NCBI GenBank assembly: GCA_030052745.1
Contig: JANBVO010000001.1
Span: 1,550,001 to 1,614,000, forward strand
Reading direction: 5' to 3'
Length of the DNA: 64,000 nucleotides
Source of the DNA: Pleurostoma richardsiae
Taxonomy: Eukaryota; Ascomycota; Sordariomycetes; Calosphaeriales; Pleurostomataceae
A program made the position numbers and the translations under genes. Positions 32,804 through 33,738 of the stretch are shown here, piece by piece. Position 1 is the stretch's first letter. The number at the start of each line of letters is the position of its first letter. The notes under the pieces were generated by a model. The model saw only the letters and a program-made list of their open reading frames with translations. It had not been told where the DNA came from and did no database searches.

Positions 32804-33738
32804 ATGCTTGTACCGTTGGCTCTCGTTACCCTCCTCTACCTGGCCGGTCCGGCTGCAGCAGTCTCGTGGTACTTCCTTCGGTTCCACACTCAAGCCAGTG
32901 TCATATCAGTGAATGGAGAGATGGCCGTTCCTCCTATTCCCCAGGCTGCGACCTACTATCTCTAGCCCGGCTTGCAGCCTACCGACACCAGCGGTATCTA
33001 CCAGAATGTGCTCGACGGCCGCACCGGCACCTGGTCGTTCAGCAGTGGCTGGTACTGCTCTGACCTATCTTGGGGCCAGTACTTCAAAACCGCCGGTTAG
33101 TTTAATCTTTCTCCCGCTCCGACACTCGCAATTCTACAAGCTTGGTGTTGCTCACTGTCTCCCGGCTATAGAGGGTGAGAGCGTTTACTTCCACAACTTC
33201 TTGCTTGATGATGGTTCTGCCTGGAATTCCACCATTGTGCGCGAGGTGAATGATGATGTGAAGAAGGACTCGTTCCCCTTGAGTAAGTAAACTCTTCCTT
33301 CCTTCCTTTTGGCAGGAGGTTTCCCCCGCTGACCATTCATCGCAGCTGACAAAACTTTCGACCAGGTGGTCTTTGCCATTAAGCTGTAAGCCGAGTTACG
33401 ATGTCCTCTGCACTTGTTTTCTAACTCAGATTAGTTACGATGTTGATTGGGACTTCGGTGAGCTCGTGTTCAAGAACGTCAAGATTGTGCGAATATATGC
33501 CAAGCTCCTAGGCAATCCCGATCTACTTTGCCAATACAATCACACCGAAGCTAGAATCTGATACTGACGATGTCTATAATAGGTTGCGGAAGGCACCACG
33601 TCGACATGCTGGTGCACGGAGGATCCTGAGAACTACAACGACAACGCCGAATACTCTATCACCAATGCAAAGGCAACTGTCAGTAGCACCACAGTGACAT
33701 GCACCTTCGAGGCCATTACTCTCATCGGGCCAGCGTAA
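32804..33738 (+). CDS. Small secreted protein interrupted by one in-frame TAG (editing candidate or pseudogene)
   Basis: Exons 32804-33095, 33172-33282, 33346-33385, 33435-33486 and 33583-33738 make 217 codons in one frame with intact splice sites. The only defect is TAG at 32963-32965, codon 54. The N-terminus (MLVPLALVTLLYLAGPAAA) is a clear signal peptide. After it come SWYFLRFHTQ, VNGEMAVPPIPQAATYYL, the stop, then PGLQPTDTSGIYQNVLDGR and a Cys-containing C-terminal part (TTSTWCTEDPENYND). TGG would give YYLWPGLQP, the pattern I recall from homologous fungal secreted proteins; that recollection is unverified. No function is known to me. The sequence after the stop shows no further decay, so the nonsense change is recent, read through, or corrected in the mRNA. 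Confidence 0.65.

What the first reader, a model, noticed from the sequence alone, without database searches (positions are those of the whole stretch)
32963..32965. Single TAG where TGG is expected in an otherwise intact five-exon secreted-protein gene
All four introns, the signal peptide and 163 codons after the stop are intact, so the only lesion is one G-to-A difference at codon 54. Sordariomycetes are known to recode UAG to UGG by A-to-I mRNA editing during sexual development, and the site has the favoured neighbours, U before and G after the A. The gene may therefore be read only when edited, which would make this an editing-dependent secreted protein. The alternatives are a recent nonsense mutation, strain polymorphism or a sequencing error.
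Basis: partly seen in the sequence, partly recalled or inferred. Interest (0 to 1): 0.75.

Follow-up and report, generated by a model that had tools for sequence, protein, structure and literature searches.

The report
Secreted-protein gene with one stop codon
A fungal gene for a small secreted protein is intact except for one internal stop codon; the fungus seems able to correct such stops by RNA editing, but this site looks a little more like an ordinary recent gene loss than a programmed editing site.

Summary
TAG at 32963-32965 is codon 54 of a five-exon gene (32804-33738, +) with four GT-AG introns and no frameshift. Three paralogs without internal stops lie in the same genome, with the same intron positions; 3 of 3 encode tryptophan at this column. 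The 'favoured neighbours' U and G belong to any TAG and add nothing.

The genome looks editing-competent: one DUF726 copy carries the Sordariomycete Ame1 MV motif, and an NDR-type kinase has TAG-TGG in subdomain IX, as published for the edited PUK1/stk-21 stop.

At this site the evidence leans the other way. The A is predicted paired (p unpaired 0.15, against 1.00 at the kinase site). CCC follows. About half of the one-step nonsense routes in the paralogs give TAG anyway. The copy differs at 25 of 131 residue columns invariant in the other three; its dN/dS is 0.21 against 0.07, p 0.046.

Best reading: a recent nonsense mutation in a fast-diverging duplicate (0.55). Editing-dependent expression stays open (0.25). 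No RNA, second strain or fungal orthologue was available.

The parts
32804..33095 (+). exon 1, with start codon, hydrophobic N-terminus and the internal TAG
   Evidence: 3' boundary shared with three paralogs
32804..32860 (+). likely signal peptide (19 residues, judged by eye, no predictor run)
   Evidence: translation; alignment
32963..32965 (+). internal TAG, codon 54; 3 of 3 paralogs encode Trp here
32944..32979 (+). predicted RNA hairpin around the TAG; outer stem strong, the A itself paired in a 3-bp inner stem
33096..33171 (+). intron 1 (GTTAGT...TATAG)
33172..33282 (+). exon 2
33283..33345 (+). intron 2 (GTAAGT...CGCAG)
33346..33385 (+). exon 3
33386..33434 (+). intron 3 (GTAAGC...ATTAG)
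33435..33486 (+). exon 4
33487..33582 (+). intron 4 (GTGCGA...AATAG)
33583..33738 (+). exon 5 with terminal TAA

Best explanation
The TAG is a recent nonsense mutation in one of four copies of a family of small secreted fungal proteins without a Pfam match or a convincing PDB match. The copy was already diverging under weakened or altered constraint, and three intact relatives remain. Shown: the TAG, the intact exons and introns, the Trp in the three intact copies, and the faster replacement of this copy at conserved columns. Inferred: that translation normally stops after codon 53, that the transcript is probably degraded because the stop lies before four introns (nonsense-mediated decay, recalled, not tested), and that the mutation is young because no second stop or frameshift has accumulated.
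For: Three paralogs without internal stops. This copy differs at 25 of 131 columns invariant in the other three; the same measure gives 5 of 110, 11 of 116 and 10 of 115 for the paralogs. Its base changes at columns invariant in the others fall on codon positions 1+2 versus 3 as 42:13 (the TAG change included), against 72:65 for the three paralogs together, Fisher p 0.003. Branch omega 0.21 against 0.07, likelihood ratio 3.97, p 0.046. Half of the weighted one-step nonsense routes in the paralogs lead to TAG (56 of 104, 51 of 105, 49 of 98), so TAG needs no special cause. The A is predicted paired (p unpaired 0.15). About 18 neutral substitutions give an even chance of another stop, about 80 give 95%, so a single lesion is what a young loss should look like.
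Against: Omega on this branch is below 1 (p 0.035 over all codons, 0.09 for the post-stop codons alone), so the protein was constrained for most of its history. The post-stop part taken alone is not significantly faster than background (p 0.11). The genome appears editing-competent and holds one published-type internal UAG, so a lone TAG here has a better than usual chance of being corrected. The RNA around it is more stable than most synonymous recodings (2.97% of 3000 fold as well).
Confidence: 0.55

Rival explanations
1. Premature-stop-correction editing. The Tad2-Tad3-Ame1 deaminase edits the UAG so that it is read as Trp in perithecia, and full-length protein is made only during sexual development.
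For: A DUF726 copy with the MV residues that PMC11087585 ties to editing in Sordariomycetes. An NDR-type kinase with TAG-TGG in subdomain IX, as published for N. crassa stk-21 and, as TAG-TAG, F. graminearum PUK1, with its A fully unpaired. A stop that falls exactly on a Trp conserved in 3 of 3 paralogs. Everything downstream intact. A MAT1-2-1-like HMG gene suggests a sexual cycle (by eye).
Against: A paired with p 0.85 in 41-, 51-, 61- and 81-base folds, whereas 62.4% of known sites lie in hairpin loops (PMC4817773). The +2 to +4 bases are CCC, where G at +2 and A/G at +3 and +4 are preferred. A member of a fast-diverging family with three other copies. No RNA evidence.
Confidence: 0.25
2. 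Strain polymorphism: a segregating nonsense allele present in the sequenced isolate only.
For: A single lesion and no other sign of decay; all that supports the best explanation fits.
Against: Cannot be separated from a fixed mutation without other strains.
Confidence: 0.08
3. Sequencing or assembly error.
For: One base only; reads were not available.
Against: The base is not in a homopolymer and lies in a 2.4-Mb contig. The copy differs from its relatives in far more than this base.
Confidence: 0.05
4. The stop is by-passed otherwise: stop-codon readthrough, removal within a small intron, or use of the 53-residue product as a short secreted peptide.
For: C follows the TAG, a mildly leaky context (recalled, not tested).
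Against: 15 in-frame GT-AG pairs would remove the TAG, but none passes a donor pattern with purine at +3 and G at +5, and no CTRAY-like branch site lies in 32804-33000. Such an intron would delete part of the conserved core. Readthrough and the short peptide were not tested.
Confidence: 0.05

Closest known systems
PUK1 and about 70 other premature-stop-correction genes of Fusarium graminearum, with stk-21 of Neurospora crassa
   Same: An internal UAG in an otherwise intact gene, where the intact protein has Trp, in a genome with an MV-type Ame1.
   Different: No RNA evidence here; the A is predicted paired rather than in a loop; unfavourable bases after the TAG; a duplicated, fast-diverging secreted-protein family, whereas the characterised examples act in sexual development.
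CHE1 of Fusarium (conserved premature stop, edited in hyphae)
   Same: A single UAG in the middle of a coding region.
   Different: CHE1's stop is conserved in related Fusarium species and lies in a hairpin loop (PMC11169179, passages). Conservation could not be tested here and a loop is not predicted. No in-frame Met follows the stop here, while F. graminearum CHE1 has one.
Young duplicate pseudogene (single nonsense allele)
   Same: One nonsense lesion, intact splice sites, intact paralogs, raised dN/dS.
   Different: Nothing observed that separates it; age unknown.

Membership tests
Premature-stop-correction (A-to-I edited) genes | in-frame UAG in an otherwise intact coding sequence | tested here: met
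Premature-stop-correction (A-to-I edited) genes | organism has the editing cofactor Ame1 with the Sordariomycete MV residues | tested here: met
   of three DUF726 loci the C2 copy has MV, one residue off the published spacing; the C82 copy has RN there. The published E, R, D, H positions fit in both the C2 and C82 copies, so only MV tells them apart. The whole C2 gene was not modelled
Premature-stop-correction (A-to-I edited) genes | same genome carries a known edited internal stop (PUK1-type UAG in kinase subdomain IX) | tested here: met
   CD(TAG)WS in an NDR-type kinase; orthology judged by class, motif and codon pair, no tree built; editing itself not seen
Premature-stop-correction (A-to-I edited) genes | edited A in a predicted hairpin loop | tested here: not met
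   p unpaired 0.15 at flanks of 20 to 40 bases; 0.67 and outside any loop at flank 15; weakly paired in a 21-base fold. A preference (62.4% of sites), not an absolute requirement
Premature-stop-correction (A-to-I edited) genes | weak base preferences beyond the UAG (G at +2; A/G at +3 and +4; U at -2; G at -3) | tested here: not met
   0 of 5 met (+2 to +4 C, C, C; -2 C; -3 U). The PUK1-like site meets 2 of 5, so the test is weak
Premature-stop-correction (A-to-I edited) genes | selection to keep the protein after the stop | tested here: inconclusive
   post-stop omega 0.20 on this branch; against 1, p 0.09; against background, p 0.11
Premature-stop-correction (A-to-I edited) genes | A-to-G mismatch in RNA (mostly sexual stage) | not testable with these tools
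   no RNA reads
Premature-stop-correction (A-to-I edited) genes | stop conserved in orthologues of related species | not testable with these tools
   no fungal genome but the window's own could be searched; one search searched prokaryote contigs only
Young duplicate pseudogene | nonsense lesion with intact relatives present | tested here: met
Young duplicate pseudogene | relaxed constraint relative to intact copies | tested here: met
   (branch model p 0.046; Fisher p 0.003; post-stop part alone p 0.11); a functional shift would look the same
Repeat-induced point mutation (RIP) damage | excess TpA, depleted CpA/TpG, positive composite index | tested here: not met
   composite index -0.31 for this coding sequence, -0.17 to -0.41 in the three 1-kb windows starting at 32-33 kb. 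Of 24 C>T or G>A changes in this copy 9 are of the RIP type (CpA to TpA on either strand), the TAG change being one. One paralog (C115) has a positive index (0.55)

The most novel reading that the evidence does not exclude
A duplicated secreted protein has placed one of its members under editing control. It is made in full length only when perithecia form, and its RNA has gained, partly through silent changes, a stable stem around the UAG that the two paralogs folded lack. That would be recruitment of stop-codon editing as a sexual-stage switch for a secreted protein.
Probability: 0.2. Interest if true: 0.6.

Novelty: new member of a known kind. Interest (0 to 1): 0.3.

Why it matters
If edited, it would add a secreted, fast-evolving protein to the editing-dependent genes and show that young duplicates can be captured by editing. 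If not, it is a clean nonsense allele in an editing-competent genome, useful as a negative case for telling programmed stops from gene loss. In either case the by-product, a PUK1-type internal UAG and an MV-type Ame1 in this genome, says that internal TAGs here should not be dismissed automatically.

Tried and rejected
Chance frame: rejected, since three paralogs reproduce the exon structure. Prokaryotic relatives: 110 stretches matched one of two peptide patterns, none encoded a relative (one scan). Pfam at E up to 10: no hit for 5 of 5 queries, namely three paralogs and two window pieces. PDB profile search: 9 hits, best E 0.22, not meaningful. Cryptic intron removing the TAG: rejected. RIP: not supported. 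MATalpha: no match, but the control rang nowhere either. DNA methyltransferase family: two matches; one region looked at, a RID orthologue not settled, the other (L069) fetched and not looked at.

Base rate of internal stops, all read by eye; the match lists are capped lower bounds. Kinases: 34 of 141 matches held stops, all 34 were read: 32 I judge to lie in introns or at exon edges, 2 are internal, both TAG (L066, L065). P450: 16 of 98 matches held stops; only the 4 whose sole stop was one TAG were read, and I judge 4 of 4 intronic. MFS: 10 matches, from 9 scored of 818 candidates; 5 held stops, none read. The L065 kinase has no relative in the genome at E up to 1e-5, so its expected residue is unknown; a weak PDB alignment (12 bits) has Val there.

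The 41-base fold with the best z-score (-3.3) was cut by me to begin at a stem already noticed; the 61- and 81-base folds give -2.4 and -2.3, and 14% of 1093 window TAGs have a 61-base fold as stable.

No structure prediction was attempted: the spliced proteins are not letter for letter in the DNA.

Full report
What is there. The window lies in a 39.4-Mb assembly of 136 contigs. On the + strand, between open frames that match glycoside hydrolase families 115 and 16, a five-exon gene runs from 32804 to 33738. It begins with a hydrophobic N-terminus that looks like a signal peptide (by eye). All four introns are GT-AG. The only in-frame stop before the terminal TAA is TAG at 32963-32965, codon 54, followed by 162 sense codons.

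Is it real? A search of the same genome with the post-stop piece found three other loci that match in two places each (a ninth match, at E 0.6, was not followed). Spliced by hand, they give proteins of 220, 220 and 219 residues without internal stops, with exons 2-4 of the same lengths (111, 40, 52 bases). Trp stands at the stop's column in 3 of 3. The frame, the introns and the expected residue therefore rest on relatives. The family has no Pfam match, no convincing PDB match and no prokaryotic relative found, so its function is unknown; that it acts outside the cell is inferred from the N-terminus.

Is the genome capable of stop-codon editing? The published system is Tad2-Tad3 with the cofactor Ame1, a DUF726 protein whose MV residues (500-501 in Fusarium) replaced KN in Sordariomycetes (PMC11087585, passages). 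Three DUF726 loci were found. The C2 copy reads MVRADK upstream of GYSLG, with M at -30 from the serine where the paper's numbers give -31; the C82 copy reads RN at the same place, the C78 copy LD. The published E, R, D and H positions (+15, +17, +58, +98) fit in the C2 and the C82 copies alike, so MV alone singles out C2. A published edited stop, PUK1 in Fusarium and stk-21 (NCU03242) in Neurospora, lies in kinase subdomain IX as UAGUAG or UAGUGG (PMC4817773, passages), and stk-21 is classed AGC/NDR (PMC3591445, one passage). Here a kinase at C1:1792052-1792234 (minus strand) reads CD(TAG)WSIGVILYECLYG, with TAG followed by TGG; its best solved relatives are STK38 (NDR1) and CBK1, both with W-W there. 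I take it as the PUK1/stk-21 orthologue; no tree was built. One HMG-box match is of MAT1-2-1 type with an intron in the box, by eye.

Does this site look edited? For: the stop sits on a conserved Trp, and the 63 bases around it fold more stably than 97% of 3000 synonymous recodings. A 41-base stretch has z -3.3 against +0.7 and +1.4 in two paralogs (the third was not folded); 61 and 81 bases give -2.4 and -2.3. Against: in that fold the A is paired (p unpaired 0.15 at flanks of 20 to 40 bases), whereas the kinase TAG is unpaired with p 1.00 at all five flank lengths. In the synonymous null, 29.5% of recodings leave the A at least as paired; among 1093 TAGs on both strands of the window 33% have the A in a hairpin loop, 38% in a stem, and 14% fold as stably. 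So the state of the A is unremarkable. Of five published weak preferences beyond the UAG none is met, but the kinase site meets only two. U before and G after the A are fixed by the codon. Half of the weighted one-step nonsense changes in each paralog yield TAG, so TAG rather than TAA or TGA shifts the odds by about two at most.

How has the copy evolved? A codon model of my own on the four copies (best of three topologies, pairing this copy with the C48:144-kb paralog) gives omega 0.21 on its branch and 0.07 elsewhere. Equality is rejected at p 0.046 and neutrality at p 0.035; for post-stop codons alone the values are 0.11 and 0.09, for the mature part before the stop 0.34 and 0.21. The copy differs at 25 of 131 columns invariant in the other three, against 5 of 110, 11 of 116 and 10 of 115 for the paralogs. 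One change removes a cysteine of the conserved pair, but another cysteine has appeared near the C-terminus, so four remain. Synonymous sites are near saturation and only four sequences were used, so these values are rough. The absence of a second stop says little: about 18 neutral substitutions give an even chance of one, about 80 give 95%. RIP indices are unremarkable, although the TAG change is itself of the RIP type. No plausible intron removes the TAG.

How often do internal stops occur here? Of 141 kinase-domain matches 34 contain stops. All 34 were read by eye: 32 lie in introns or at exon edges; two are internal, both TAG, the PUK1-like gene and a second kinase (C60:327449-328003, SPES(TAG)ARARQ). 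Of 16 P450 matches with stops, the four with a lone TAG were read and look intronic; twelve were not read. Two of two being TAG is suggestive and far too few for an estimate.

Verdict. I put 0.55 on a recent nonsense mutation in a relaxed duplicate, 0.25 on editing, 0.08 on a strain polymorphism, and the rest on error or by-pass; these are judgements, not computed. Either outcome belongs to a known kind. Also seen: PMC11156358 (parts 1 and 2 of 3) and PMC11169179 (passages). Paper searches were made; none was aimed at this gene or its family, so I make no claim about what is in print on it.

Noticed in passing
L066, G000:C1:1792052-1792234 (-): NDR-type kinase with TAG-TGG in subdomain IX, very likely the PUK1/stk-21 orthologue with its published type of edited stop; the A lies in an apical loop, p unpaired 1.00.
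   Followed up: partly
L065, G000:C60:327449-328003 (+): A second kinase-domain gene with one internal TAG (SPES(TAG)ARARQ) and open frame on both sides; no relative in the genome at E up to 1e-5. In folds of 41 and 51 bases the A is in a 9-base loop, in 61 and 81 bases it is mostly paired.
   Followed up: partly
L013/L016 (C2:678 kb), L012 (C82:538 kb), L014/L015 (C78:271 kb): Three DUF726 genes: one with the Ame1 MV residues, one with RN at that place, one more distant.
   Followed up: partly
L029, G000:C60:248701: MAT1-2-1-like HMG box interrupted by an intron (by eye); no MATalpha match, so perhaps a heterothallic MAT1-2 isolate, though the MATalpha search had no positive control.
   Followed up: no
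window 32804-33738: This copy has lost one cysteine of a conserved CC pair but gained another (TCWCT), so it still has four; also two in-frame two-residue deletions.
   Followed up: no
window 32944-32979: Stable stem around the TAG not seen in the two paralogs folded; it may be chance (3% of synonymous recodings fold as well).
   Followed up: partly
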